A DNA stretch of 39,798 nucleotides, from assembly GCA_024421095.1 (NCBI GenBank), contig JAHQYM010000013.1, forward strand, positions 1 to 39,798. Direction: 5' to 3'. Positions 24,550 to 39,798 of this stretch are shown here, one piece after another. The notes beneath the pieces are model-generated. The model saw only the letters and a list, made by a program, of their open reading frames with translations. It had not been told where the DNA came from and did no database searches. Position numbers and translations under genes: made by a program. The stretch's first letter is position 1, and each line of letters starts with the position of its first letter. The DNA comes from Acidimicrobiia bacterium (GTDB lineage: Bacteria > Actinomycetota > Acidimicrobiia > Acidimicrobiales > Aldehydirespiratoraceae).

Positions 24550-25638
24550 TCAGCGTAGACGATGAAAAATCCTTGGCCGACGCACCTCGATAGGCCGGTC
24601 TGAACACCATGTTGCTTTGGGCGCTCCAAGCCAAGAAGCAAGCGACAGCAGTGGACGATCGTAGTTGACTCGCCAACCTGCGAAGTCACGCCACGCTTGT
24701 TGCTGGTCGGCCACGACCGGCATACCACTTGATTGAAATTGCACATAGACATCGTCGAACTCAGCTTGGGTAATCGATATGGGGTCATCTGGTGAAGGAT
24801 CAGGGTCGTACTCAAAACCGAAATAGTCGCAAATGCGTCGCAGTGACAAAGTGCCGGTGCGGATCATCAACTGTGCACGCGGGTCGGTTGGTACCGCCAA
24901 CACCGAAGAGTAAAGCGATGCCGAATCAAGCACCGAACCCGCACACGTGATCCATGACCGCTGCGGCACCTGCGAACGGAAATAAACCAAGATCGGGAAA
25001 CTGGTGTGACTTTCTTCTATCTCCGCAAACCAATCTTCCCATTCATACCAAGTATGCATCATGGTATCTAGCGAGCCGACTTGATGGCGCCGCAACAGCA
25101 CCGCCGCCGGGCCAACAGCGCTATACACACCCATGGAGCGCAAATCCCATTTCGCGACTGCGGTTTCTCGCTTCGAAAAAGCCGCGTAAATCGTCGGCAA
25201 GAAACTAATCAAGAGAGCGACCAAACCGAGGCCAACGATCCCTTCAGCGATTTCCACAGCTAGCGTGGGAAAATCATTGGTGCTGCGGAACCCGAGCGTG
25301 GTGAGCGAGGAACCCGACAACACTACTGCGTCTTGATAGGGACGAACCCCGAGCGCCCAAAACACCCCCGAGCAACCAAGTATCACACCACAGGCCCAGA
25401 CAAATGGAAACGTCATAAGAGCTACTGGAGCGAAACGAGCTCTCACCGCTTCAGCTTTGTTCCAATCACCTCGGCGGTTCGCTACCCAGTTGAACACTTG
25501 CCGTAAGCTCAAGACCGTGGCATTAGCAAGGAAGGATTGTTCGCCCCGCGGCACCACCACAGTACGAATGGCCGACCCCAAAGTGGCAAGAGCAACCAAA
25601 CCACCCAAAACCCCGATGATTACCCGCACAACGATCAC
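24550..25638 (-). CDS. Ion-channel-like membrane protein (K+-channel pore-like)
   Basis: 362 residues. Membrane segments are seen at about 4-24, 73-95 and 128-150. Between the second and third lies SGSSLTTLGFRSTNDFP, which looks like the pore loop of two-helix K+ channels, with TLGF in place of the usual TVGYG filter. About 200 soluble residues follow, ending in a basic tail; they hold no RCK Rossmann motif that I recognise. Function: probably a cation channel or channel-derived protein; the altered filter makes ion selectivity uncertain. The GTG at 25638 lies six bases after TAAACT on the minus strand, so the message is likely leaderless. It diverges from the peptide export operon with a 73-bp shared promoter region. 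Confidence 0.65.
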   Translation of the reverse strand: MIVVRVIIGVLGGLVALATLGSAIRTVVVPRGEQSFLANATVLSLRQVFNWVANRRGDWNKAEAVRARFAPVALMTFPFVWACGVILGCSGVFWALGVRPYQDAVVLSGSSLTTLGFRSTNDFPTLAVEIAEGIVGLGLVALLISFLPTIYAAFSKRETAVAKWDLRSMGVYSAVGPAAVLLRRHQVGSLDTMMHTWYEWEDWFAEIEESHTSFPILVYFRSQVPQRSWITCAGSVLDSASLYSSVLAVPTDPRAQLMIRTGTLSLRRICDYFGFEYDPDPSPDDPISITQAEFDDVYVQFQSSGMPVVADQQQAWRDFAGWRVNYDRPLLSLASWLGAPKATWCSDRPIEVRRPRIFHRLR

Positions 25639-25683: not shown

Positions 25684-25725
25684 ATGTTGTTTCACTCAGG
25701 CGCAGGCTGCTATGACGCAACGTAA
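25684..25725 (+). other. Possible 13-codon leader ORF overlapping the HlyD-like start
   Basis: ATG at 25684 opens MLFHSGAGCYDAT and ends in TAA at 25723-25725, overlapping the next gene's ATG (25712) in another frame. TAGCCT lies seven bases before it, as in the leaderless genes of this window. The HlyD-like gene has no clear Shine-Dalgarno sequence, so translation could be coupled to this leader. Such a short frame can arise by chance. Confidence 0.3.
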
Positions 25726-26599
25726 AAAGTTGTTCCGCGAGGAAGCATTCAAGAGGCGGGGTCAAGCCGAACCGATCAACGGGCTGTTGCGCGTCACCGC
25801 ACCTCACGAATGGTTGATCGTGGGCGTTCTTGGATTAGCCGTTCTGGGTCTATTGGCATGGAGTTTCTTCGGCCGAATCGACCGCAGCCTTTCCACAAAT
25901 TGCATCTTGGCAACTCCCGGTGAACGTGTCGCGGTTGTCGCCGACTCAGCGGGCACAGTGCTAGATGTGCTAGTCGACACTGGCGATCAGGTGAGCGCCG
26001 GGCAACCCATCGCTCAGGTCAGAACCGCAGATTTGGCGCGGCGCACAGCGCTCGCCCGAGCCCATTTGGCCACCCTTGAAGTCAGTGACAAACCCGAGTC
26101 GGCAGCACTCGAAACCGCCCACGCGGAACTGCAACAACTCGAGGCGCTGCAAGCATCTGGGGAACCAATCGTGAGTCCATATAACGGTGAAATAGTCGCC
26201 CATTGGCTCACTAACGGACAACCATTGGAGCCAGGTAACTATGTCGCACTTGTGAGCACGAATAGCGACCCCGGGCTTGAGGTGTTGGCCACTGTCGGCC
26301 CGCACGAGGCACGGCAACTCAAGACCGCGATGTCGGCGCGGGTCTCGATCGGTCAAGGCGAAAGCGCTGCCAATCTTGTCTTTGATGCCACAGTCCGAGA
26401 GGTTACACCTCGTGGTTCTGTGGTGCCGAAGTGGGTAACTGGGTTCGGACTGTCGATCCCAACCGAAGGTCACTTGGTGCGTCTCAACCTCAGCGAAGAA
26501 CCGCCAGCTGCTTGGGCTGACGGCACTGCCTGCCGCGTGCGTATCGTGCTACACCAAGACAGGCCAGTGCAGTTGTTGGCTTCTCTGAGGACGTTTTAG
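25712..26599 (+). CDS. NHLM-type peptide export system, HlyD-like periplasmic adaptor
   Basis: 295 residues. A cytoplasmic N-terminus (to about 32) is followed by one membrane helix (33-53, HEWLIVGVLGLAVLGLLAW), then a biotinyl-lipoyl-like domain (GTVLDVLVDTGDQVSAGQP, 80-98), a short helical hairpin (105-150), the second lipoyl half (PYNGEIVAHWLTNGQPLEPG) and a beta-barrel-like end. This is the membrane-fusion protein of type I-like secretion. Its size, its order ahead of two ABC genes, and the two ABC proteins themselves match the NHLM (nitrile hydratase leader microcin) export cassette. It lies 17 bp upstream of the peptidase-ABC gene. No strong ribosome binding site precedes the ATG; see the leader ORF. 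Confidence 0.83.
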   Translation: MTQRKKLFREEAFKRRGQAEPINGLLRVTAPHEWLIVGVLGLAVLGLLAWSFFGRIDRSLSTNCILATPGERVAVVADSAGTVLDVLVDTGDQVSAGQPIAQVRTADLARRTALARAHLATLEVSDKPESAALETAHAELQQLEALQASGEPIVSPYNGEIVAHWLTNGQPLEPGNYVALVSTNSDPGLEVLATVGPHEARQLKTAMSARVSIGQGESAANLVFDATVREVTPRGSVVPKWVTGFGLSIPTEGHLVRLNLSEEPPAAWADGTACRVRIVLHQDRPVQLLASLRTF

Positions 26600-26616
26600 A
26601 AGTTGAGGAAGCGAGT

Positions 26617-28911
26617 TTGAATTTCGTGAAACTGTTCGCTAAGCGGCGCGCAACACGGAGAATAACCACGCCGTTGTTTCCGCAGATGGAAGCTGCTGAA
26701 TGCGCAGCGGCAAGCCTAGGGATTGTCTTGGCTCACCACCGACGCTGGGTACCTATTGAAGAGTTGCGCCGTTGTTGTAGCGTTGGCCGAGACGGCTCAA
26801 CAGCCGCGGATATCGTCAAAGGGGGGCGCGAGTTCGGGCTCAAGGTTAGCGGCTACCGACGCGACGTAGCCGAGTTGACGAACGGCAAGCTCCCCGCAAT
26901 CCTCTTTTGGGAATTCAATCATTTCCTAGTTCTTGAGGGGTACCGCCCCAAGAACAAACTCCTCAATCGCAACGCTGGCTTTTATCTGAACGACCCGGCG
27001 AACGGCCGCCGTTTGATGAACGAAGACGAATTCAGTGCGGCGTTTACGGGTGTGGTGCTTTACGCTGAGCCGACCGCCGAGTTTCGGCGTGGCGGGAAAC
27101 CGCCCGGGATCATTCGCGCTTTGTGGCCGTGGCTGCGAACCGTCCGCAGTTCGCTAGTTTACATGCTGCTAACTGGCCTGCTCCTAGCCGTTCCAGCGTT
27201 GGCTATCCCGCTACTGTTGCGCTTGTTCATTGACCACGTGCTGACTGGAAGTGAGCGTGCCTGGGGCAGCATTGTGATCGCCGCAATCGCCGCCGCCGGA
27301 GTGTTTGCGTATATCCTCACTTGGCTTCAGCAGTTTACCCTACGAAAAATCGCCGTCTCGCTTTCGGTGACCAACGCGGAACGCATGTTGTGGCGATTAT
27401 TCCGTTTACCGTCACGCTATTTCGCCCACCGTTTCGCTGGTGATCTCACCTCTCGCGTGCAAATCGTCGACAATGTAGCACAAACCTCGGCCCGCTATCT
27501 CGTGGCCATCACTATCGAATTGCTGATGAGTGTTTTGCTGTTGGCGTTGATGCTAGTTTTCGATGTGGCATTGGCGTTGATTGTTGCGGCCATAGGCATA
27601 GCCAATGTCGTTGTGATGCGCCTTTTCAACCGTTTACGAACTGACGAGAATCGGCAAGTCAAAAGAGAACAAGCCTTGTTGTTGGGGATCGGTACCGCTG
27701 GTCTGCGCGACATTGATTCGTTGCGAGCATCAGCAAGAGAAGACGACTTTTTCGTTCGCTGGAGCGGATATCAAGCTCGTGAACTCGCCTCACGTCAGAA
27801 ATTCGTTGAACTTGGTTACGTGATTGCTTCGCTACCGGCCCTGTTTTTGCTCCTCGGCAGCATCGCGGTACTTGGTTTCGGTGGCTGGCGAGTGACATCC
27901 GGCGCAATGTCCATTGGCACACTTATCGGCTTCTACATGCTTGCCAGCAACTTCTTGATTCCCATTGGCCGCTTTGTGTCTTTCGCGGACATTTTTTCAG
28001 TACTTGAAGCAGACTTGGCACGCATCAACGATGTGCTCGACGCACCCCTAGACCCGGCGCTCAACAGCGCAGCCAACGCAGACAACGCAACTCGCGAAAC
28101 CGCCAGCGAGCCAGAGACTAGAACCAAGGTTGCAACGCTCAAAGGGCGGCTACGACTCGCTGGCCAGATTGAATTACACAACGTCACGTTCGGCTACCAA
28201 GCCAATCGCGAGCCACTCATAAAAGACTTCAACTTGACTATTCAACCGGGCCAACGAGTGGCCATTATTGGTGCCACCGGTTCCGGAAAATCAACTTTAG
28301 TGCGCCTCATCAGTGGGGAATACACCCCCCAAGCCGGCGAAATTCGTTTTGATGGAGTTGCCGCCGCAGAGATACCGCGCAACGTCTTTACTGGTTCGGT
28401 AGCCGCCGTCGACCAACACATTTTTCTCTTTTCGGGCACCATACGTGACAATTTGACAATGTGGAACCCCACGGTTAGCGACCAACAGATAGTCAACGCG
28501 GCGACAGATGCATTGATCCACGAGGAGATAATGAGCCGAGTGTCGGGCTACGACTCGGTTGTGACTGAAGCAGGCCGCAACTTTAGCGGTGGCCAACGGC
28601 AGCGTCTCGAAATTGCACGCGCGTTGGTAAACAACCCATCAATATTATTCCTTGACGAGGCCAGCAGCACCCTCGACACGATCACCGAGGAACGTATCGA
28701 CGACGCGCTAAGGCGGCGCGGCTGCACCTGCGTGATCGTCGCTCACCGACTCAGCACCATACGCGATTGCGACCAGATCATTGTTTTGGATCGGGGACGC
28801 GAGGTGCAACGCGGTACCCACCACGACCTGCTCGCAGACCCCAGCGGAGCTTACCGTGCGCTTTTGGGCGCGCACGAAGCAGTCGTCCTCCAACCCAATT
28901 CGTTACCATGA
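26617..28911 (+). CDS. NHLM-type ABC exporter with C39 leader peptidase
   Basis: 764 residues in three parts. The C39 bacteriocin-processing peptidase (about 15-140) has Gln23 and the nucleophile Cys29 in PQMEAAECAAASLG, His102 in FNHFLVLEGY and Asp126 in YLNDPANG: a full triad. Six membrane helices follow (about 165-450). The ATPase holds Walker A IGATGSGKST (about 549), signature FSGGQRQRLEIA (about 655), Walker B ILFLDEA and switch VAHRLS. Such proteins cut a leader peptide after a double-Gly-type site and pump out the core. The start is the TTG at 26617 with GAGGAA six bases upstream. The gene overlaps the second ABC gene by 4 bp (ATGA). All motifs are intact, so the exporter should be functional. 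Confidence 0.92.
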   Translation: MNFVKLFAKRRATRRITTPLFPQMEAAECAAASLGIVLAHHRRWVPIEELRRCCSVGRDGSTAADIVKGGREFGLKVSGYRRDVAELTNGKLPAILFWEFNHFLVLEGYRPKNKLLNRNAGFYLNDPANGRRLMNEDEFSAAFTGVVLYAEPTAEFRRGGKPPGIIRALWPWLRTVRSSLVYMLLTGLLLAVPALAIPLLLRLFIDHVLTGSERAWGSIVIAAIAAAGVFAYILTWLQQFTLRKIAVSLSVTNAERMLWRLFRLPSRYFAHRFAGDLTSRVQIVDNVAQTSARYLVAITIELLMSVLLLALMLVFDVALALIVAAIGIANVVVMRLFNRLRTDENRQVKREQALLLGIGTAGLRDIDSLRASAREDDFFVRWSGYQARELASRQKFVELGYVIASLPALFLLLGSIAVLGFGGWRVTSGAMSIGTLIGFYMLASNFLIPIGRFVSFADIFSVLEADLARINDVLDAPLDPALNSAANADNATRETASEPETRTKVATLKGRLRLAGQIELHNVTFGYQANREPLIKDFNLTIQPGQRVAIIGATGSGKSTLVRLISGEYTPQAGEIRFDGVAAAEIPRNVFTGSVAAVDQHIFLFSGTIRDNLTMWNPTVSDQQIVNAATDALIHEEIMSRVSGYDSVVTEAGRNFSGGQRQRLEIARALVNNPSILFLDEASSTLDTITEERIDDALRRRGCTCVIVAHRLSTIRDCDQIIVLDRGREVQRGTHHDLLADPSGAYRALLGAHEAVVLQPNSLP

Positions 28912-31874
28912 CCGAAGACCCCAGCAGAGCTGCACAAAACCCTAGGCCTGAAGCACCATTGCCCAACCCTGCAAGACTCGGGCTCGCAGAAATGGCTCAG
29001 AATTTCGGGCAACCGCTCGCCGTTGCTGGGAACCTTCCACTGTTTCTTGACAATGCCGAAAATGTTTATTTTGTGGAGCGAGGTGCGCTTGACGTGTTCC
29101 TCGTAGAACAGGTGGAAGGCGAGTTTGTTTCGACCTCCAAACACTTGTTACGCGCTGAACAAGGCCGCCTGGTTTTCGGGTTCGGTGAAGGCGATTCGCC
29201 GGTTGTCGTGGTGGCGAAAGGTCTACCCGACTCGAGTGTGCGCCAACTCACCATTAGCGAACTCGAACACCATACCAATAGCACCGAGTTGGCAGCCCAA
29301 GTAGACAAGTGGATTAGTGAGATAGCACGCTCGGTTGCGGCTCAAATCGAACCCCGCCCCCAACCCGACATGCTCATCGACGCGGCGCATTTGAACACGA
29401 TTCTCCAAGTGGAGCGAACGCAAGTCGTTTCCATGCGTGCGGCTGGGCTCGTTTGGATGACCTCAACAAAAGGCGCTCTAACCTATCTACATACCGAGGA
29501 CGTATCACGGGGCCGTAGCGGTCTGATCCCGCTTACCGCCGACACCTGGCTCAGCATCGAACCCAACGCGGTACTCCAGCCGCTAGCTTCGCTAGACCTC
29601 TTTGCACGCGGCGACCTATTTGTAGCCCTAACCGATTTTCATACGCACATTCTCAACGCTGAACACCTCAACCGTGTCCTTCAGATTGCAGACGAAGTCA
29701 ACGAACAAGTCAGCAGTTCAAAGCACCGCCAACGCGATCATGAAAGCGCCCGAGCGGATTTGCACGCACTGCTCTGGCGCGCTCGGCCAGGCGCAGAAAC
29801 CAACGGTTCGGAGTTGCTCGCCGTGCTCAAGATGATAGGCGAGCGAGAAGGCATCAGCTTTCACGCACCTCCTCGGCGCAACTGGGTTGGCGACCAACCC
29901 AACCTCAAAGAAATTCTTGAGGCATCCGCGGTGCGCGCCCGCAAGGTGCAGCTGTCGCCGGAGGACCGTTGGTGGCTTGGCGATAGCGGCACAATGCTCG
30001 CCTTCCGCAAAGACGACGGACGACCGTTGGGATTGTTCTCGGGGTCCACTGGGCACTACTACACCGTGGATGCGAATAGCGACAAAAAACTTCGGTTAAA
30101 CGCTTCACGGGCGCGCCAACTAGCTGGCGATGCCTGGCTTTTCTACCCAACGCTGCCGAACAACAAGGCGATTGACGGCAAAGACCTGTGGAGGTTGGTG
30201 CGCCGAAGTGTCACCCAAGACGCAAGCCGCATCATCGTGTCTGGTTTAATTGCTGGTCTCTTGACCCAAGCACCGGCGATCGCTGTCGGTGTGTTGGTTG
30301 CTTCGGTATTGCCATTCGCCGCAAACAGCATGCTGGCGCAAGTCATCTTTGGTCTTGGTGCGTTCGCGATTGTTGGAGTGATGCTGAGGATGGTTCAAGG
30401 CACGGCACTGATGCGAACCGAAGGGCATGTTGCTTCGCGCCTCAGTGCCGCTTTGTGGGATCGTCTCTTAGTCTTGCCGTCCAACTTTTTTCGCTACTTT
30501 ACTGCCGGCGAATTATCTGTGCGTATGACAACATTTCAAAACCTGCGAGATCAACTCTCCGGGGTGGTGGCCAACGCCTCTCTAAGCCTAATATTTTTGT
30601 TGCCAACGTTGGCGATCCTGTTCATTTACGACCCTGGTTTGGGGTTTGTCAGTGTTGCGATTGCGCTGTTCGCATTGGTCGTTTCCACCACCCTCGGTAT
30701 TCGCCAGATAAGGCCACTGCGTCTTCGTTTCGAAGCGAGCCGAGCGCTAGCCGGAAACTTAGTGCAGTTCATTAGCGGCATGAGCAAGTTGCGCGTGGCT
30801 GGAGCGGAAGCTTCCGCTTTTGCTTCATGGGCACGCATTTACCGTGATCAACATTTAGCCAACATTGCGATATCAAGGCGTAATGAGCACTTGGCCGCAT
30901 TCAACGCAGCATTGCCGGCACTGTTGAGCGCAGCGCTTTTCGCTGTTGCTCTCGCCCGTGACCCGGCAAGCCTTACGGTAAGCGACTTCCTAGTTGCGTA
31001 TGCGGTTTCTATGACCTTCTTTGCGTCGGTAAGTGGACTTACCCGCAGTGTCGGAGCTATCGCCGCGGTACTCGTTGGCTATGAACAGGTGAAACCTATC
31101 CTGACCGCTCTACCCGAGGGTTGCCAAAAAGTCGGCGAAAGCATGACTTTGGCTGGCGAGGTGCGTCTTGATCACATCAGCTTTCGCTACTTTGAAGACG
31201 GCCCCCTGATAGTTGACGATGTGTCTATCCATGCCCGACCCGGTGAGTTCGTAGCCGTTGTTGGCGAGTCGGGAAGCGGCAAGAGCACCCTTTTGAGGCT
31301 CGCTTTGGGCCTTGAAACACCCACCAAGGGCGGTGTTTACTATGACGGGCATGATCTAGCCAATCTTGACAACCGTTCAGTGCGCCGACAACTTGGGGTT
31401 GTTACCCAAGACGGCGCGCTGCAACCCGGCAGCATTTTAGACAATATCTTAGGAATGGGCGAGGAACTCACGCTCGACGATGCTTGGCGAGCCGCTCGGC
31501 TTGCCGATGTTGAACGTGACATCTCCGAAATGCCGATGGAAATGTTCACCGTCATTGGCGAAAGTTCTTCGTCCTTTTCGGGTGGGCAGATCCAACGGAT
31601 TCGTATCGCCGCGGCGCTTGTCAACAAGCCAAGGATCGTGTTGCTTGATGAAGCCACTAGCTGGTTGGACGCGCGCAGTCAAGCCGAGGTCATGGACAGC
31701 ATCAAAAGCCTCGCCTCCACTCGCATTGTTGTCGCCCACCGCCTCTCCACGATCCGTTCCGCCGACCGGATTTATGTTTTGGATGCCGGCCGGGTTGTGC
31801 AGCAGGGCACTTTTTCAGAACTCTATGCCGTGGACGGCACATTTCGTAGATTGGTCTCACGCCAAATCAGTTAG
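28908..31874 (+). CDS. NHLM-type second ABC exporter with long N-terminal region
   Basis: 988 residues. Residues 1-430 are a large N-terminal region without peptidase motifs; the part around GNLPLFLDNAENVYFVERG and ALDVFLVEQVEGEF looks like a cupin or cyclic-nucleotide-binding-like sensor fold, as known for this subunit of NHLM cassettes. Six membrane helices follow (about 445-715). The ATPase has Walker A GESGSGKST (about 785), Q-loop VVTQDG, signature SFSGGQIQRIRIA (about 890), Walker B RIVLLDEATSWLD and switch VVAHRLS. It likely pairs with the C39 protein as a heterodimer. An open frame extends upstream into the previous gene, but the ATG at 28908 in the ATGA overlap is the natural start. 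Its 3' end overlaps the convergent S9 peptidase by 18 bp. Confidence 0.9.
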   Translation: MTEDPSRAAQNPRPEAPLPNPARLGLAEMAQNFGQPLAVAGNLPLFLDNAENVYFVERGALDVFLVEQVEGEFVSTSKHLLRAEQGRLVFGFGEGDSPVVVVAKGLPDSSVRQLTISELEHHTNSTELAAQVDKWISEIARSVAAQIEPRPQPDMLIDAAHLNTILQVERTQVVSMRAAGLVWMTSTKGALTYLHTEDVSRGRSGLIPLTADTWLSIEPNAVLQPLASLDLFARGDLFVALTDFHTHILNAEHLNRVLQIADEVNEQVSSSKHRQRDHESARADLHALLWRARPGAETNGSELLAVLKMIGEREGISFHAPPRRNWVGDQPNLKEILEASAVRARKVQLSPEDRWWLGDSGTMLAFRKDDGRPLGLFSGSTGHYYTVDANSDKKLRLNASRARQLAGDAWLFYPTLPNNKAIDGKDLWRLVRRSVTQDASRIIVSGLIAGLLTQAPAIAVGVLVASVLPFAANSMLAQVIFGLGAFAIVGVMLRMVQGTALMRTEGHVASRLSAALWDRLLVLPSNFFRYFTAGELSVRMTTFQNLRDQLSGVVANASLSLIFLLPTLAILFIYDPGLGFVSVAIALFALVVSTTLGIRQIRPLRLRFEASRALAGNLVQFISGMSKLRVAGAEASAFASWARIYRDQHLANIAISRRNEHLAAFNAALPALLSAALFAVALARDPASLTVSDFLVAYAVSMTFFASVSGLTRSVGAIAAVLVGYEQVKPILTALPEGCQKVGESMTLAGEVRLDHISFRYFEDGPLIVDDVSIHARPGEFVAVVGESGSGKSTLLRLALGLETPTKGGVYYDGHDLANLDNRSVRRQLGVVTQDGALQPGSILDNILGMGEELTLDDAWRAARLADVERDISEMPMEMFTVIGESSSSFSGGQIQRIRIAAALVNKPRIVLLDEATSWLDARSQAEVMDSIKSLASTRIVVAHRLSTIRSADRIYVLDAGRVVQQGTFSELYAVDGTFRRLVSRQIS

Positions 31875-34115
31875 GTTGAAATTGTGCATAGTGACACTTG
31901 CCGGCCACTTCGGCGTTGCGCGAGTTAGCGCCTCGTGCAAGAACTGCGATTGCAGCACCAGCAGGTTTTCTGCCACTTTTTCTTGGGGGGTCATATGCGA
32001 CACACCAGGCAAAGGAAGCACCTGATGCGGGTAACCCGCTTCAAGCAAAGCCTGCGACAAACGCAAAGTATGCGCTGCGACCACATTGTCGTCCGCAAGA
32101 CCATGAATCAACAACAGCGAAGGCACCTTATCTACATCAACATCAACAGGGCACTTAGCACCAACAGGGCACTTAGCACCAAAAAGCACATTGCTGCGCT
32201 GATAGTTTTGAGGATTTTGTTCGGGATGACCGAGATACCGCTCGGTGTAGTGAGTGTCATACAAACGCCAATCCGTGACCGGCGCACCAGCGATCGCCGC
32301 AGAAAACACATCAGGACGGCGTAACACTGCCAACGCCGCCAAATATCCCCCAAAAGACCATCCGCGGATTGCAACGCGGTCAAGATCAAGACGGGAATCA
32401 ATCTCTGCCAACGCATAGAGCGCATCGATTTGATCCTCAAGCACCGGCGCGGCCAAGTCACCCCAAACCTCACGCTCAAATTTCGGGCCCCGACCGGGCG
32501 TGCCCCGACCATCGGTAACGACCACCGCAAAACCCTGATCAGCGAACCACTGCGCCACGTAAAACATCGACCGCGAGCGCAGTACTCGCTGTGCATGGGG
32601 CCCGGCATAGGGGTCAAGCAGCACCGGCAACTTAGCCTCTGAAGCCCCTATAGCTTCTGTGCTGCTTGACGCCGTGGTGTTGGGCAACAACAACGCCGTA
32701 GCTAGATCTCGCTTACCCACACGATGCATCGAGATCTTCAAGGAAATCTCTGGTGCCGCGTTGTGGCTGGAAATTCGCCCCTGCACACGCCCCGACCGCC
32801 ACACCTCAACTTGGGCACCGTCAAAGGCCAAACTACGCTTGGCACGCACCTCCGTTGCGCCACCCCAAAGCGCACTAGCAACGCCCTCGCCAGCGACTGT
32901 GTATGCACCGTTCTCCCACCAACTCAGTTCACCATTCCAGTTGAGCGTGGCTACGTTCACCGAAGTTGGTTCTGTGCGAGCGGCAATCACGATGCCCGCA
33001 TCGTGTACCTTGAGCACGCTGCACACCTGCACAGCATCACCAGTCAACGCTTTACCGTCCACACATAACCGTCTCGCTAAACCACGATCCTCAACAGTCA
33101 CCAATCGGCCATCATGGAGGGTCGGCACACCCGCAACTAGCTCAACCCAATACTCATCGCCAATCTCATAACGCAGCTGACAATCGCCCGATACTGGATC
33201 GACATCAAGCACCCCGAGCCACCGTTGGTCACGGCTTTGTACGGTCAACAAAATCCCTTCCTGACACCATTGCGCGCCAGCCAAATATTCCCATTGCGCT
33301 GCATTGTCGGGTGGCTGCGCCGACCGCCAATCCACCTCAACTAAGCGGTCATCAAGGCTAATAATGGCTAAGTTCACCAGCGCGTTGGCACGACCAGCGC
33401 GAGGATAACGCAACTCTCGCGGTGCATCCCAAGGATTGTTCGGTGACATCATCCACCACTTATCAACCGACGACACATCCACCTTCGCCACCAGCAGAGC
33501 TGAACTATCCGCTGCCCACCAAAACCCTCGACTGCGGCCCATTTCCTCAGCCGCAATGAACTCAGCAGATCCCCAAGAAATCGTTGCTGTATCTTCACCG
33601 ATTAGCGACGTGTCTTTGTCATCAACCAACACCCGTAACTCACGCCCCGCCAAATACGCCAACTTCAAACCGTCAGGCGACAAACGCGGATCAAAGGCGC
33701 CCTGTGCAGCATCTAGCACACGGAGCTCGCCGCTGTGCAAGTCCACCCGAACCAGCCGTGATCCGGCAACAAAAACCGCAACATTAAGATCGGCATCCGC
33801 GTCGTAGGCAACTATGCCGCCACCAAGTTCACGTGCGCGCTCACGCCGCGACTGTTCCGCCGCGCTCAAATCGGTCAGATCGGTGTTGAGTTGAGTTGCG
33901 AGCGCCGCAGCATCCACAACCAAACGTTCAGTGCCAGTTCCCACATCAAAACACCACAAAGAATTGACCGCATCGGTCGGACCGCTTGAACGCAGAAAAA
34001 CTACCCGCTCACCATCGGCTGAAACCCGCAAGTCTCGCGGAGAACCAAGAGTAAATCCGCGAGTAAGTCCATACTGGCGAGGAAAAGATTGATCACTCAA
34101 CTGAGCGTGGCGCAT
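31857..34115 (-). CDS. S9B dipeptidyl-peptidase-IV-like serine peptidase
   Basis: 752 residues. The first 480 form a beta-propeller-like domain. EFIAAEEMGRSRGFWWAAD (Glu190-Glu191) matches the double-Glu helix that in DPP-IV binds the substrate's free N-terminus. The C-terminal alpha/beta hydrolase has Ser587 in GWSFGG, Asp675 in HGLADDNV and His707 in GVSHMT. There is no signal peptide, so it is probably cytoplasmic and releases N-terminal dipeptides, often X-Pro. Near residue 646 the six residues GAKCPV occur twice in tandem, from an 18-bp duplication just before the catalytic Asp region. It converges on the peptide exporter; a role in trimming its cargo is not supported by sequence. Confidence 0.92.
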   Translation of the reverse strand: MRHAQLSDQSFPRQYGLTRGFTLGSPRDLRVSADGERVVFLRSSGPTDAVNSLWCFDVGTGTERLVVDAAALATQLNTDLTDLSAAEQSRRERARELGGGIVAYDADADLNVAVFVAGSRLVRVDLHSGELRVLDAAQGAFDPRLSPDGLKLAYLAGRELRVLVDDKDTSLIGEDTATISWGSAEFIAAEEMGRSRGFWWAADSSALLVAKVDVSSVDKWWMMSPNNPWDAPRELRYPRAGRANALVNLAIISLDDRLVEVDWRSAQPPDNAAQWEYLAGAQWCQEGILLTVQSRDQRWLGVLDVDPVSGDCQLRYEIGDEYWVELVAGVPTLHDGRLVTVEDRGLARRLCVDGKALTGDAVQVCSVLKVHDAGIVIAARTEPTSVNVATLNWNGELSWWENGAYTVAGEGVASALWGGATEVRAKRSLAFDGAQVEVWRSGRVQGRISSHNAAPEISLKISMHRVGKRDLATALLLPNTTASSSTEAIGASEAKLPVLLDPYAGPHAQRVLRSRSMFYVAQWFADQGFAVVVTDGRGTPGRGPKFEREVWGDLAAPVLEDQIDALYALAEIDSRLDLDRVAIRGWSFGGYLAALAVLRRPDVFSAAIAGAPVTDWRLYDTHYTERYLGHPEQNPQNYQRSNVLFGAKCPVGAKCPVDVDVDKVPSLLLIHGLADDNVVAAHTLRLSQALLEAGYPHQVLPLPGVSHMTPQEKVAENLLVLQSQFLHEALTRATPKWPASVTMHNFNLTDLA
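32144..32179. repeat. 18-bp perfect tandem duplication inside the S9 peptidase gene
   Basis: CAACAGGGCACTTAGCAC occurs at 32144-32161 and again, with no change, at 32162-32179. It encodes GAKCPV twice on the minus strand. The lack of any difference between copies points to a recent event or to selection for both. Confidence 0.9.
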
Positions 34116-34172: not shown

Positions 34173-34545
34173 ATGCGAGAACACCGAGGAATTGTCAACT
34201 GGGGGATTTCTTCCACGGGAAGCATTGCATCTCAGTTCGCTAAAGCGTTTCGCAACCTCAACGGTGGACGGCACAAAAGGCTTCGTTGAATTCCCCGCAC
34301 CGGTACACGCCACCCACACCGTGATCATGCAAAACGCGAGTGGACGCCAGGAGATCAACAAAGCACCGGCATCGTTGCGCTATCAAGTGGAGGAAGTCCA
34401 CCGTTGTTTGGCTGGCCGCGAACAGCAAAGCCGGCACATGCCTTGGGCAACAAGTCGGGCCCTGATTGCCCTATGCGATAAAGCACGAGCGCAACTCGGA
34501 GTTCGTTACCCAACCGAATCAGCATCCTCGGCGCAAACCACCTGA
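34173..34545 (+). pseudogene. Gfo/Idh/MocA oxidoreductase, internally deleted and frameshifted
   Basis: The first part, from the ATG at 34173, reads VNWGISSTGSIASQFAKAF, the N-terminal Rossmann start of this NAD(P)-dependent dehydrogenase family, and hits a stop at 34287-34289. From about 34260, in another frame, the C-terminal end appears: VDGTKGFVEFPAPVHATHTV, YQVEEVHRCLAGRE and MPWATSRALIALCDKARAQL, then GVRYPTES, with a stop at 34545. About 170-230 residues between the two parts are missing, including the dehydrogenase's catalytic Lys region. The junction lies near 34255-34265 and shifts the frame. A strong AGGAGG at 34163-34168 still precedes the start, so decay looks recent. The tail overlaps the end of the EccC/EssC-like gene by 40 bp. 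Confidence 0.85.
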
Positions 34546-37500
34546 ACAACCTCAAACTCCGAATCCGCCACAAGCACTCCCCTACCAGCAACATTGCGAA
34601 GCGCTAGGCGCGCTGGCAGCGAAACTCCTAAAAGATCGCCGTCAATAGGGTCGGGCCTCAACAAAATACCAACCTTTGATGCGCGTATGTCGACCGACCA
34701 ATGACCGTATGCAGAGCGCAACTGGTCGGGTTTCGCCGCCACAACAAGATGCACACCTGCCGGCGGTGACGCTACAAGTTGCGCTAACTGACCCGAGGGG
34801 TCAGCCACACTAAGACAATCGTCTACGAGCACCAAAAGCGGGCCAGCCGAAATCTCCTCCCCAAGCGCCTCAACGCCCACGAGCTTACACCCGGTGCGCG
34901 CTGCAAGCTCGCCAGCGCTTTGCGTCGCATCGCCAACGATCACACAACGACCACCACAAGCTGAAGCGATCGCAATCAAAGTGTTGCTGCGGCCCGAGCG
35001 CGCCGGACCCAAAATCAAGGCATGCTCTCCACGATGCAAACGCATACGACTAAGGCTCAGGTCTCGATCACTAACCGCCACAGCCAGATCAGTTTCGGTC
35101 GACCCGACTCTGCCCCAAGCACCCGCTTGAGATTGCGTGATCACCGCCGCGAGCACCCCAACCCGGTGAGGTTTCACAAGCGGTGGGGCAGAGTCCTGTC
35201 GGGAAATTACCGATTCCTCAAGACTGGGCGAATCTTTGACGACTTGGGCGATCACACCGTCGCCAACACGCAACACCCTTCCGTTAGGGAAAGTCTCCGT
35301 GGGCACTTTCACACCGAACCGCAAAGCATCAGAGGTTTCCGCCAAACGATGCAACAATACAGTTCCCGCGGTTGCCGCTAACGCCACTGGTAGATCTGCT
35401 GCTCGGCGAACTGAGACAGCCACAACAACCCCAACCGCCGGGCCATCCGCCCAGATGCGCTCCAACGCCTCATGTACAGCCTGTTCACGAATCGGGTCAT
35501 GGGCGCGGCCCAGGCCACCCAAGTCATCAATCACCAATAGCAGCGGTGGGGTTCGCTGCTCGTCAGCGCGACGGCGCGCAATCTCTTCATCTAACCAACG
35601 CAGCAAACGCACCCGGCGTTCCTTATCAGTAACCGTGGCAACGGTTCCGCAGTGCGCCAATCTGCCTAGTGAAGCGATCCCGCCACCGTCAAAATCTATC
35701 ACCTGTAAATGCGCGGCGCAATCTCTTGCATCAGCGGTTACCGCCAACGCAGCCGTGGCGAGGGTAGTGGTGGCGCCGGTACCGGGCGCACCAACCACCA
35801 CTAGGTGACCATCGGCTAAGGTCCATCCAGAAACCGTTTGCCTTTGCTTGTCGGGTTCGTCTACTAGCAACCACCCCGCAGACACCTCCCCGGAGGCTGG
35901 GGCCCGACACGCTCCAAACCAGTCACCCAACTGAGCACGGCAAATATTCTTGGGCAAGGCTGGAGGCCAAGGTGAACGAGGTGCCTGGCCATCAACACGA
36001 CGATGGGCGGCTCGGATCGTGGTCACTAAGCGCCACAAATCGGTGGGGCCTTCAAGGTTGCTTGCCGCGGTTTGCACACTGCGTACACTAACACTTGCTA
36101 AACTGCGCGAATGGCCAGTCGCCAGCGCCGACTGAAAGGGTGTGATCTCACCAGGCCCGAAGCGTGCTATAGCTCGGCCCGGCCGGTTGCGGGGAATCCC
36201 AGCAGCATCGCCCACATCAATAATGTCGACCGATTCCCGCGGATCAGAAACCCGCAACGCGATCCGACAACTCGCGTTGGCACGAATATCGTCGGTGACC
36301 ACACCCGTAGGACGTTGCGTGGCAAGCAGCATATGCACCCCGAGGCTGCGACCCCGCTGCGCGATACCTACCAGAGCATCCAGAAATTCCGGCAAATCAG
36401 CCGCCAAAGAGGCAAACTCATCAACCACCACCAACAGCCTCGGCAAAGGCTCACGCAAACTTTCCTCGGCACCGTCTTGCGCCGAGGAAAGCCGAAACGC
36501 AGCTAAATCCTCGGCACCCACCTCACGTAGCCGCAACTCGCGATAACGCAACTCTGCTTCTAAGCAACGCAACGCACGCGCCGCCAACTGTTCGTCAAGA
36601 TCAGTTACCAAACCAGCCACATGCGGCAGGTCGGCACAACAATCAAACGCCGCGCCTCCCTTATAGTCGACTAACACCATCGCCACATGATCGGGATCAT
36701 GTGAGGCAGCCACACCAGCAACGAACGACCGCAACAACTCCGACTTGCCAGCACCAGTCGTGCCACCAATCAACACGTGAGGCCCATCAGCAACTAAATC
36801 CAACATCACCGGACCTTGTGCATCAACACCGATCGGTGTGGCGATATCGGCACTGCCTTGGGTTCGCCGCCAACGCCTCAGAATCTCAGTTTCGTCATCT
36901 CCGCTTATTCCGAGCAAACTCAACAACCCGCAAGCCACTGGTACACCGGCACCAAGTAGCGGCAACTCAGGGTCATCAAGACGCGCCAACCGCCGCGCAG
37001 CTTGGCGCGCTAGCACTTCTTCAACCCCCCAACCCAAAGCAGTTCGCACCTCTCGATGATGGCGAGGATCTAGCAACTCTAAACGACCCAAGTAATCGAC
37101 CGTGACCACCAAATCACAGTCCGCCGGCAAACGATGCGCGTCTTCCACCAAAACAATTGCCGCACAGCGTTTACTACTGAGCAACCTCCGACCAACGGTG
37201 AGGCGACCCTGAAAGGGGTCGGCACCATCAATCACCGCAAGCACACTACGATCGCTGTTGATTGCCAACAATGCATCGGCGGTAGCAACATCGGCCGTGG
37301 ACACAACGGTTGCGCCACGCCTTGCGGTGCCATGATCCGCTGTGTGCGGTAGCCACCGACACCAATCCCAAATCATCGGGTCGTCAGCACCAACCGCTAC
37401 CGCCAGGTCTGCCGGGCCGTGATGCACCACCGCCTGCAACAGCAACGCCCGAGCAACCGACAACGCCGCGCTGCGGTCGCCTAGCAAACCAATCACTTGG

Positions 37501-38636
37501 CCAGCCGACAAATCCACTTCTAAGGGCACATCACTCATCGGTGGCAGTTGAGCCACCAGCACACTTGCTTGGCTCGCCGGGGACTGGCCTTGCGAAGTTA
37601 GCAGTGACGGCGCGAACGCTTCATCGCTCGCCCCGACAGCAACCCGAAACGCATCGGGATGCTCGCCACGACGCTCCCAACAATGCACCGAAGGCCCCTG
37701 GGCACGGCGAATTACCTCGGCCGGGTCTGGATGCAAACTTCGTCGGCGTGCCATCTCTGCGACTCGCCGAACCGGCAACTCGGCAGCCAAAGTGGCCAAC
37801 TCTGCTTCCATTTCAGCGACAGCAAGACGGTGGTCTCGGCGATTGCGACGCCGACGTTCCCACCACGTGCCAATCGTGACAACGGGCCCAAGCGCCGCAA
37901 AAACCGCAAACAACGGACTCAACACCAGCGCGATCACCAAACCAGCGATCACTGGTAAGACGATCCCGGCTACCGACAACGGCTCAGTCTTGGCCAACTC
38001 AGGCGCTTCTGGGGGCACGATCAACTCGGGCGGGGCCACGTCGGGCAGGCAGCGCGGCGGTCGGTTGAATGGTATTGTCCCACCTGCTGCGCCCAACGCA
38101 TTGACAACTGCGACGGGTCGATCATCGCAGGGTGCGCGCAGCATTATTCGGGTTGCGCCAGCACGCACAACTCCACCCTTTGGCAATACCACGGGTTCGC
38201 CCACGGGCACTTCATGCCCATCAACACTGGTGCCGTTGCGCGAGCCATGTTCAAGGATTTCGTTGACCGAGATGCTGCATTGTCGACGCGATACGGTCGG
38301 GTCTAACAGCGGTAAACCGGCTTGGCTATCGCGCCCCACCAATACTGCCTCGGTTAATGAAAAACAGTGCGCCCCACCAGCACGGATGCCGCCCACAATA
38401 ACGAGCATCCGTGCCGTGGGACTCGGTGCTGCTTGGGGAGCCACGGACTCAAGCACCGAACCTTCGCAAAGAGCAACGCCAGACAATCGACTTTCAAGGC
38501 TGATCGGTTGACCGTCAAGAACTAACGGCCCCGATATTCCTAGCGCAGTCTGCAAGTCTTCAACTAGCGCGTGCCGATCACCGAATTCAAGTTCGACGAT
38601 CCGCTCGCCAGCTTCAGAACGGTAAACGATACGCAC
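34506..38636 (-). CDS. EccC/EssC-type secretion ATPase with FHA domain (FtsK/SpoIIIE)
   Basis: 1376 residues. A ubiquitin-like N-terminus (1-65) is followed by an FHA phosphothreonine-binding domain (about 77-167: VGRDSQAG, VSRRQCSI, GSRNGTSVDG). Two membrane helices lie at 221-257, then three FtsK-type ATPase modules. Module 1 is intact: Walker A GGTTGAGKSE (624-633), VDYKGGAAFD, Walker B LLVVVDE (734-740). Modules 2 and 3 lack the Walker A lysine: GAPGTGATT (949) and GPARSGRSN (1210), as usual for these motors where the rear modules regulate. The FHA-first layout resembles Firmicutes EssC more than mycobacterial EccC. It would drive export of WXG100 proteins. GTG start with AAAGGG four bases upstream. 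It follows the WXG100 gene after 57 bp. Confidence 0.9.
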   Translation of the reverse strand: MRIVYRSEAGERIVELEFGDRHALVEDLQTALGISGPLVLDGQPISLESRLSGVALCEGSVLESVAPQAAPSPTARMLVIVGGIRAGGAHCFSLTEAVLVGRDSQAGLPLLDPTVSRRQCSISVNEILEHGSRNGTSVDGHEVPVGEPVVLPKGGVVRAGATRIMLRAPCDDRPVAVVNALGAAGGTIPFNRPPRCLPDVAPPELIVPPEAPELAKTEPLSVAGIVLPVIAGLVIALVLSPLFAVFAALGPVVTIGTWWERRRRNRRDHRLAVAEMEAELATLAAELPVRRVAEMARRRSLHPDPAEVIRRAQGPSVHCWERRGEHPDAFRVAVGASDEAFAPSLLTSQGQSPASQASVLVAQLPPMSDVPLEVDLSAGQVIGLLGDRSAALSVARALLLQAVVHHGPADLAVAVGADDPMIWDWCRWLPHTADHGTARRGATVVSTADVATADALLAINSDRSVLAVIDGADPFQGRLTVGRRLLSSKRCAAIVLVEDAHRLPADCDLVVTVDYLGRLELLDPRHHREVRTALGWGVEEVLARQAARRLARLDDPELPLLGAGVPVACGLLSLLGISGDDETEILRRWRRTQGSADIATPIGVDAQGPVMLDLVADGPHVLIGGTTGAGKSELLRSFVAGVAASHDPDHVAMVLVDYKGGAAFDCCADLPHVAGLVTDLDEQLAARALRCLEAELRYRELRLREVGAEDLAAFRLSSAQDGAEESLREPLPRLLVVVDEFASLAADLPEFLDALVGIAQRGRSLGVHMLLATQRPTGVVTDDIRANASCRIALRVSDPRESVDIIDVGDAAGIPRNRPGRAIARFGPGEITPFQSALATGHSRSLASVSVRSVQTAASNLEGPTDLWRLVTTIRAAHRRVDGQAPRSPWPPALPKNICRAQLGDWFGACRAPASGEVSAGWLLVDEPDKQRQTVSGWTLADGHLVVVGAPGTGATTTLATAALAVTADARDCAAHLQVIDFDGGGIASLGRLAHCGTVATVTDKERRVRLLRWLDEEIARRRADEQRTPPLLLVIDDLGGLGRAHDPIREQAVHEALERIWADGPAVGVVVAVSVRRAADLPVALAATAGTVLLHRLAETSDALRFGVKVPTETFPNGRVLRVGDGVIAQVVKDSPSLEESVISRQDSAPPLVKPHRVGVLAAVITQSQAGAWGRVGSTETDLAVAVSDRDLSLSRMRLHRGEHALILGPARSGRSNTLIAIASACGGRCVIVGDATQSAGELAARTGCKLVGVEALGEEISAGPLLVLVDDCLSVADPSGQLAQLVASPPAGVHLVVAAKPDQLRSAYGHWSVDIRASKVGILLRPDPIDGDLLGVSLPARLALRNVAGRGVLVADSEFEVVQVVCAEDADSVG

Positions 38637-38693: not shown

Positions 38694-38969
38694 TCAGACG
38701 GTGTCTAGTGCGGTTACTCCAGCCTGGAGTTCTTTGCTGATAAACGCTGAATGCTCCCCCAGCGCTTCAGCTAGGTTCATCAGGTTTGGACGGAACTCAG
38801 TGTTCCAAAGTTGATGGAACCGATCCGCACGGTTGCCTTGCCAAGTGGTGCTTTCAAGCCCAGACTGGATAGCCCTGATCACATCCTGCACCGCTTGTTG
38901 CTGCCGAGCAAAATTGCCCGCTAGCTGTTCCATTTGTGACTTGCTCATGATTAGCATGTCGCCCGCCAT
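38694..38969 (-). CDS. WXG100 family protein (ESAT-6-like)
   Basis: 91 residues, a helical hairpin with the turn TTWQGNRADRF (Trp43-Gln44-Gly45), the WXG motif of type VII secretion substrates. There is no signal peptide. The C-terminal helix ends in LQAGVTALDTV; a strict Y-x-x-x-D/E export signal is not seen there. WXG100 proteins are exported as dimers by the EccC/EssC motor, encoded just downstream, and may act as adaptors or structural parts. The ATG at 38969 has a perfect AAGGAGG six bases upstream, the strongest ribosome binding site in the window, and suggests high expression. Only one WXG100 gene is present. Confidence 0.93.
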   Translation of the reverse strand: MAGDMLIMSKSQMEQLAGNFARQQQAVQDVIRAIQSGLESTTWQGNRADRFHQLWNTEFRPNLMNLAEALGEHSAFISKELQAGVTALDTV

Positions 38970-39677: not shown

Positions 39678-39798
39678 GTGACTGTGGGTGTGGAGCCGTG
39701 TCAGGCTGATTTGTTTAAGGGAACCGGGTTTGTGGGGGATCGTGTTGGGCAGCGCTCGGTTTTTTCTTTGCTGGCGCGTGAGGGGCCTCGCTTGTTTG
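39678..39798 (+). CDS. Transposase-like protein, N-terminal fragment (IS1182-like)
   Basis: Forty codons are visible before the window ends, opening MTVGVEPCQADLFKG and reaching VFSLLAREGPRLF. The pattern of a short variable start followed by (S/L)VF-LLA-E-x-x-LF resembles the N-terminus of actinobacterial IS1182-type transposases, where the next block would be FADLF. A GGGGAGG ribosome binding site lies eight bases before the GTG. Codon use is strongly T/G-rich (GTG, TTG, GGT, TTT), unlike most genes of the window, fitting a mobile element. The family call is tentative because the DDE catalytic part lies outside. Confidence 0.5.
   Translation, partial: MTVGVEPCQADLFKGTGFVGDRVGQRSVFSLLAREGPRLF

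What the first reader, a model, noticed from the sequence alone, without database searches (positions are those of the whole stretch)
25712..31874. Complete NHLM-type RiPP exporter with no visible precursor or modifying enzyme
HlyD-like protein, C39 peptidase-ABC with intact Cys29/His102/Asp126, and a second ABC with a sensor-like N-terminal region form a tight operon. NHLM cassettes export ribosomal peptides that carry nitrile-hydratase-like or Nif11-like leaders. Here no leader-bearing ORF and no cyclodehydratase, radical SAM or lanthionine synthetase gene lies within 6 kb on the left or 8 kb on the right. Either the cargo is encoded elsewhere in the genome or the system exports a short or unmodified peptide. 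In a lineage not known for such systems this could be a new natural-product or signalling pathway.
Basis: partly seen in the sequence, partly recalled or inferred. Interest (0 to 1): 0.68.

Follow-up and report, generated by a model that had tools for sequence, protein, structure and literature searches.

The report
Peptide exporter with cargo gene elsewhere
This is a complete three-gene peptide secretion machine in an uncultured actinobacterium related to marine sponge symbionts; its likely cargo, a short and apparently unmodified peptide, is encoded on a different piece of the genome, and related machines in sponge bacteria of two phyla carry the same kind of short peptide instead of the long-leader precursors this exporter type is named for.

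Summary
The cassette is real and intact: HlyD-like 25712-26599, C39-peptidase ABC 26617-28911, second ABC 28908-31874. Both ABC proteins pass the curated NHLM cut-offs. No precursor lies in the window, and the genome has no NHLP leader, Nif11 leader or YcaO. The nearest cassettes (sponge-symbiont Actinomycetota and Chloroflexota) carry, beside the exporter, a short ORF (49-90 aa) with a classical double-glycine leader. A profile of these leaders finds one credible hit in this genome, on another contig: C207:36428-36613(-), 61 aa, MGDTLQTHEARSQTENELTEEELRAIVGG|NGCGTEEAPDVPLPDDFADPISTKQAFMPLPE. It has a good ribosome-binding site, and its core is homologous to the peptide directly behind ABC2 in a sister genome (28/50 identical, E 3e-11). 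ABC1 phylogeny puts the window in a 26-member clade with short-GG cargo (19 seen beside the cassette, 0 NHLP); neighbouring clades carry NHLP precursors. No recognised RiPP enzyme was found in the flanks examined. Best reading: a C39/ABC exporter of a short, acidic, proline-rich, probably unmodified peptide whose gene has become separated from the exporter operon. The exporter is known; the cargo subclass appears undescribed in the papers searched. Secretion, cleavage and role are untested.

The parts
25712..26599 (+). HlyD-like membrane-fusion protein, 295 aa, short form
   Evidence: TIGR03794 88 bits over residues 20-125 (below cut-off 156), PF13437; ORFs of about 295 aa in most sponge cassettes, 481-591 aa in cyanobacterial ones
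26617..28911 (+). ABC1: C39 peptidase - permease - ATPase
   Evidence: TIGR03796 886 bits, above cut-off; PF03412, PF00664, PF00005; Cys29/His102/Asp126 and ATPase motifs intact
26671..27078 (+). C39 peptidase domain of ABC1 (predicted to cut after the double glycine of the leader)
   Evidence: PF03412 residues 19-154, 1.1e-26
28908..31874 (+). ABC2: tandem CNB-like beta-roll region - permease - ATPase, translationally coupled to ABC1 (ATGA)
   Evidence: TIGR03797 721 bits, above cut-off; Walker A/B and signature present
28974..29615 (+). N-terminal region of ABC2 with two CRP/CNB-like beta-rolls
   Evidence: AlphaFold2 model pLDDT 90.9 from 38 sequences; CRP/FNR-type domains Z up to 11.7 for residues 25-150; PKA-R tandem domains, Foldseek E 7e-7 but low TM 0.24 over the whole
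24550..25638 (-). left flank, not part of the system: conserved 362-aa protein of the genus (no Pfam hit), next to Cache and MgtE genes
   Evidence: 75-78% identical in all five genus relatives, including three without the cassette
31857..34115 (-). right flank, not part of the system: S9 (prolyl oligopeptidase-type) peptidase, overlaps the end of ABC2 by 18 bases; occupies the place where several relatives have the peptide gene
   Evidence: PF00326/PF00930; not beside the cassette in genus relatives; peptide gene directly behind ABC2 in L009, L010, L015, L079 and in assemblies G100, G101

Best explanation
The cassette is a working NHLM-type exporter whose cargo is a short double-glycine peptide, not an NHLP/Nif11 precursor. 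In this genome the cargo is the 61-aa ORF at G000:C207:36428-36613(-), outside the window. Proposed mechanism: the C39 domain of ABC1 binds the LxxxxL helix of the leader and cuts after GG, and the ABC1/ABC2 pair exports a 32-residue acidic, proline-rich peptide; HlyD acts as accessory protein; the two CNB-like beta-rolls of ABC2 may gate transport by an unknown ligand. The peptide is probably not modified, because the core residues that RiPP enzymes commonly use are not conserved and no such enzyme was found in the places searched. The gene was probably beside ABC2 in the ancestor and became separated by rearrangement. Shown: cassette, leader, homologous core, phylogenetic grouping, absence of NHLP, Nif11 and YcaO. 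Inferred: pairing, cleavage, export, lack of modification, course of the rearrangement.
For: Nearest cassettes have a short GG-leader ORF beside the exporter. Profile A1 of 18 such leaders finds one credible place in the own genome, E 8.9e-5 (the only other hit is E 1.4 inside a 591-aa frame). Its core, outside the profile except for two residues, matches the sister peptide: APDVPLPDDFADPI / APDVPLPDDIATPI; 28/50 identical, E 3e-11. SD GAAGGAG before the ATG. dN 0.46 vs dS 1.9, dS near saturation. The contig belongs to the genus: trpS on it is 80-81% identical in genus relatives. Among 81 related genomes the leader profile hits 9 of 11 with the cassette and 2 of 70 without (Fisher 1e-8; 1.4e-3 with only the three short-peptide genomes not used in training). 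ABC1 tree: the window pairs with L009 (100) and L010 (99) in a clade of 26 with 19 short-GG loci and no NHLP. No NHLP leader, Nif11 leader or YcaO in this genome.
Against: The pairing of peptide and exporter is by homology and co-occurrence; nothing shows expression, cleavage or export. C207 and C44 are separate contigs of a draft assembly, so their true distance is unknown and a binning error cannot be wholly excluded. Core conservation rests on one good pair (G000/G004). Genome-wide absence was tested only for YcaO among modifying enzymes; an unrecognised or distant enzyme could still act. Three clade members (L013, L018, L019) have no detectable leader peptide at all.
Confidence: 0.77

Rival explanations
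1. The cassette is a classical NHLM/proteusin exporter that serves an NHLP or Nif11 precursor encoded in trans.
For: Both ABC proteins pass NHLM family cut-offs; related cassettes in other clades do sit beside NHLP precursors.
Against: No NHLP leader at E<=1 in the own genome, none in G002, G004, G081, G082, G083, G085 either; no Nif11 leader in the nine-genome test except in the cyanobacterial genome G095; no YcaO. The assembly is estimated 98% complete.
Confidence: 0.04
2. The short GG peptide is the cargo but is post-translationally modified (for example a graspetide or other RiPP class with an enzyme encoded elsewhere).
For: Acidic core with Thr, Ser and Lys in G000; modifying enzymes can be encoded in trans; only YcaO was searched genome-wide.
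Against: Flanks of the sister cassettes examined are housekeeping genes: aconitase, AMP-binding enzyme, GreA, SecA, AdoHcyase, IF-2B-type protein; no modifying-enzyme family recurs across short-GG loci, whereas YcaO recurs in 17 NHLP loci; Cys, Ser and Lys of the G000 core are absent from the G004 core.
Confidence: 0.13
3. Orphan or decaying exporter: the cassette has lost its own cargo and the C207 peptide is a non-functional remnant.
For: Peptide and exporter are on different contigs; flanks are rearranged relative to relatives.
Against: All catalytic motifs intact, no stop or frameshift; the peptide has an intact ORF, SD, and a conserved core homologous to the cassette-linked sister peptide.
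Confidence: 0.06

Closest known systems
NHLM export cassette (TIGR03794/03796/03797; Haft et al. 2010, PMC2887384)
   Same: Same three-gene architecture; ABC1 and ABC2 above the curated cut-offs.
   Different: No NHLP or Nif11 precursor in the genome; cargo candidate has a short GG leader of 29 aa; HlyD is short and under its family cut-off. The paper itself noted that the exporter is more widespread than NHLP.
Cyanobacterial PteB exporter and EbfG1-4 small GG-motif proteins (PMC4997328)
   Same: C39 transporter required for secretion of small GG-leader proteins without described modification.
   Different: EbfG precursors are about 9-10 kDa; here a dedicated second ABC with CNB-like N-terminus is present; the function of the peptide is unknown here.
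Sponge RiPP proteusins (srp clusters; PMC9426513, PMC10858898)
   Same: GG-leader ribosomal peptides of marine sponge microbiomes.
   Different: srp uses an NHLP leader, a YcaO cyclodehydratase and a brominase; the first two are absent from this genome, brominase not tested.
Double-glycine peptide/PCAT systems of Gram-positive bacteria (for example pneumococcal rtg, PMC7018657)
   Same: GG peptides processed by a C39 domain; the leader here has hydrophobic residues at -12, -7, -4 and GG at the cut site, as in classical GG leaders (own knowledge).
   Different: A single PCAT rather than an ABC1/ABC2 pair with HlyD (own knowledge).

Membership tests
NHLM export cassette | ABC1 with C39 peptidase scoring above TIGR03796 cut-off | tested here: met
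   886.1 vs 853.3 bits; catalytic residues present
NHLM export cassette | ABC2 scoring above TIGR03797 cut-off | tested here: met
   721.0 vs 709.4 bits
NHLM export cassette | HlyD-like protein scoring above TIGR03794 cut-off | tested here: not met
   87.8 vs 156.2 bits, match only to residues 20-125; homologous but short
NHLP/proteusin or Nif11 RiPP system | precursor with NHLP (TIGR03793) or Nif11 (TIGR03798) leader in the genome | tested here: not met
   none in the own genome
NHLP/proteusin or Nif11 RiPP system | YcaO cyclodehydratase (TOMM subset) | tested here: not met
   PF02624: no match in G000; two matches in the NHLP-type genome G093
NHLP/proteusin or Nif11 RiPP system | lanthionine synthetase, radical SAM or other modifying enzyme | tested here: inconclusive
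   none among window genes scanned nor in the sister flanks scanned one by one; pooled scan shows only 25 of 118 families; not searched genome-wide
Double-glycine peptide exporter (works like PteB/PCAT) | C39 domain with Cys/His/Asp | tested here: met
   Cys29, His102, Asp126
Double-glycine peptide exporter (works like PteB/PCAT) | cargo candidate with GG leader (hydrophobic -12, -7, -4) in the genome | tested here: met
   C207:36428-36613(-), L-12, L-7, I-4, G-2 G-1
Double-glycine peptide exporter (works like PteB/PCAT) | cleavage after GG and secretion of this peptide | not testable with these tools
   needs biochemistry

The most novel reading that the evidence does not exclude
A branch of NHLM exporters in sponge-associated Actinomycetota and Chloroflexota uses short, unmodified double-glycine peptides in place of NHLP precursors, giving a cross-phylum family of small secreted peptides that could act as signals or antagonists between symbionts or towards the sponge host.
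Probability: 0.4. Interest if true: 0.72.

Novelty: new variant of a known kind. Interest (0 to 1): 0.55.

Why it matters
NHLM cassettes are commonly read as a sign of modified RiPPs. Here a whole branch of the exporter is linked to short peptides without known modifying enzymes, so an exporter that looks orphaned can be matched to its cargo by leader type and exporter phylogeny. If the peptides are secreted, they are a ready-made, testable set of small molecules passing between uncultured sponge bacteria and their surroundings; a survey of sponge MAGs reported that few lineages encode classical secretion systems (PMC8163846).

Tried and rejected
NHLP leader in own genome: none. Nif11 leader: none. 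YcaO: none. Strict and scored searches for a GG leader inside the window: none above background. Flanking genes shared with other cassettes: the window's flanking proteins tested were not found beside other cassettes. Empty site: the left flank (362-aa protein, Cache, MgtE) is conserved in cassette-free relatives, but the S9 gene lies elsewhere in them, so no clean empty site could be drawn. Weak NHLP hits (about 1e-10, frames of ~199 aa) in several relatives were read as probable nitrile hydratase subunits, not leaders; not tested further. Two leader-profile hits in cassette-free genomes (G022, G033) lie in frames of 420 and 618 aa and were taken as chance. Promoter: the standard scan found none; a TTGACA-15 bp-TATACT pair upstream of the peptide was looked for after seeing the sequence and has a short spacer, so it is only a hint. 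The Pfam scan gave no cyclic-nucleotide-binding hit to ABC2; only the fold comparison points there, and a shared fold does not show ligand binding.
Full report
The observation. The window is 39,798 bases of contig C44 of a 2.7 Mb draft genome (231 contigs, estimated 98% complete). ABC1 and ABC2 score above the curated cut-offs of NCBIfam TIGR03796 and TIGR03797; HlyD is related to TIGR03794 but scores well below its cut-off. The peptidase residues Cys29, His102 and Asp126 and the ATPase motifs are present. The flanks in the window are not RiPP genes: a genus-conserved 362-aa protein, Cache, MgtE and PhoU/TrkA-C proteins on the left, an S9 peptidase and an FHA-FtsK/SpoIIIE protein on the right.

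The sensor-like part. The N-terminal 304 residues of ABC2 were predicted from an alignment of 38 sequences (mean pLDDT 90.9). The model shows two beta-rolls followed by a long helix. Residues 25-150 match CRP/FNR-type sensor domains (best CooA, Z 11.7, rmsd 2.7 over 113 residues); Foldseek ranks PKA regulatory subunits, which have two such domains in tandem, first (E 7e-7, but TM only 0.24 over the whole). This supports a sensor-like fold. It does not show that a nucleotide is bound, and Pfam gave no cyclic-nucleotide-binding hit.

Relatives. The closest ABC1 homologues in the species-level genome collection are an Acidimicrobiia MAG (L009, 76%), the Sva0996 marine group bin134 (L010, 73%), then Chloroflexota. 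Many of the 80 loci come from sponge studies: bin134, bin87, bin90, bin127, bin94 and bin95 are bins of the Aplysina aerophoba metagenome (PMC5649159), and jk18x bins are from Ircinia (PMC9531527); the RHO, COS, CAR, IRC and APA bins fit the sponges of PMC8163846, though that paper's main text does not print the codes. The origin of the window's own genome is not known to me; sponge association is an inference from its relatives.

The cargo. None of the window's flanking proteins tested lies beside these cassettes. What recurs instead is a short ORF of 49-90 aa with a double-glycine leader, ELTxEELxxVxGG, mostly just behind ABC2 or ahead of HlyD. In L009 it is 55 aa long and sits between ABC2 and greA. 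I aligned 18 of these leaders (A1) and searched whole genomes. In the own genome there is one credible hit, C207:36521-36574(-), E 8.9e-5; the next is E 1.4 inside a 591-aa frame. The ORF runs 36428-36613(-), is 61 aa long, is preceded by GAAGGAG at a good distance, and lies between trpS and a prephenate dehydrogenase-like gene (identified by eye from the translations). The profile covered only two residues beyond GG, yet the core is homologous to that of L009/G004 (APDVPLPDDFADPI and APDVPLPDDIATPI; 28 of 50 identical, E 3e-11 for the pair), with relatively more synonymous than non-synonymous change (dN 0.46, dS 1.9, the latter close to saturation). The contig is of the right genus: trpS is 80-81% identical in five genus relatives, none of which shows the tyrA-like gene or the peptide within the 1.5 kb fetched around trpS.

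Is the link more than chance? Among 81 related genomes, 11 have the full-length C39 exporter and the leader profile hits 9 of these, against 2 of 70 without it, both of the latter in long frames. Four of the nine supplied training sequences and two (G027, G068) are tails of longer leaders; with only the remaining three the Fisher test still gives 1.4e-3. Relatedness of the genomes is not corrected for.

Phylogeny. In an ABC1 tree of 80 sequences (quick IQ-TREE run, SH-aLRT supports) the window pairs with L009 (100) and L010 (99) inside a clade of 26 (support 95) from Actinomycetota and Chloroflexota. Nineteen of the 26 loci show a short-GG peptide, none an NHLP precursor; outside, 45 of 54 show NHLP and one (cyanobacterial L083) a short-GG peptide. 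Leader type is strongly clustered on the tree (0 of 500 shuffles as low). Of the seven clade members without a local peptide, L026, L028 and L032 stop at contig ends, and in their genomes a leader-profile hit lies next to a terminal piece of ABC2; the window has its peptide on C207; L013, L018 and L019 have none that the profile detects.

Modification. YcaO proteins recur in 17 NHLP-type loci and in no short-GG locus; no YcaO is found in G000, G004, G002, G082, G083 or G087. Flanks of the sister cassettes examined one by one are housekeeping genes or unassigned; a pooled Pfam scan of 95 flanking proteins of short-GG loci listed no RiPP enzyme among the 25 most frequent of 118 families, the rest not being shown. 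The Cys, Ser and Lys of the G000 core are missing from the G004 core. I therefore favour an unmodified peptide, with moderate confidence.

How it probably works. Shown: an intact C39/ABC exporter, an intact GG-leader gene with a homologous core, and no NHLP or Nif11 leader in the genome. Inferred: the leader's LxxxxL helix docks to the C39 domain (as reported for the ProcA leader and the LahT protease, cited in PMC10858898), the peptidase cuts after GG, and ABC1 with ABC2 exports a 32-residue acidic, proline-rich peptide, possibly gated by ABC2's beta-rolls. The sister arrangement (peptide convergent, directly behind ABC2) and the S9 gene now abutting ABC2 suggest that the peptide gene was separated by rearrangement, but no relative shows an intermediate state. 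What the peptide does is open; EbfG proteins of Synechococcus, secreted with the help of the C39 transporter PteB, are needed for biofilm formation (PMC4997328) and are the nearest tested precedent that I found.

Novelty. The exporter family is known (PMC2887384), and that paper already expected further precursor families. Paper searches found none that describes this short-GG branch in sponge bacteria, but the library holds open-licence papers only. I rate it a new variant of a known kind.

Noticed in passing
window 34506-38636 (-) and 38694-38969 (-): FHA-FtsK/SpoIIIE (EccC/EssC-like) protein of 1376 aa with a 91-aa WXG100-like ORF (WQG motif) directly upstream: a type VII-like pair with no other secretion component seen in the window.
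   Followed up: no
L047:2533-3705(-), L057:7556-8683(+), L029:11588-12703(-): A protein family of about 376 aa without Pfam hit occurs in 34 NHLP-type cassette loci and in none of the short-GG loci: a possible unknown partner or modifying enzyme of the NHLP-type systems.
   Followed up: partly
L013, L018, L019: Three Chloroflexota cassettes inside the short-GG clade have neither NHLP nor detectable short-GG peptide near the cassette, and no leader-profile hit in the genome; their cargo is unexplained.
   Followed up: partly
L017, L020, L021, L022, L035, L037, L038, L042: HlyD-like ORFs of only 170-193 aa (by simple ORF calling) against about 295 aa in most sponge cassettes and 481-591 aa in cyanobacteria.
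   Followed up: no
L017:9152-9313, L020:4318-4479, L021:201-359: The mature peptide ending in AKRNAYNAAQQPWQATI is almost identical in three Acidimicrobiia while the leaders differ, suggesting strong constraint on the core.
   Followed up: no
window 39679-39798: Start of an ORF at the right edge that looks like a transposase; not tested.
   Followed up: no
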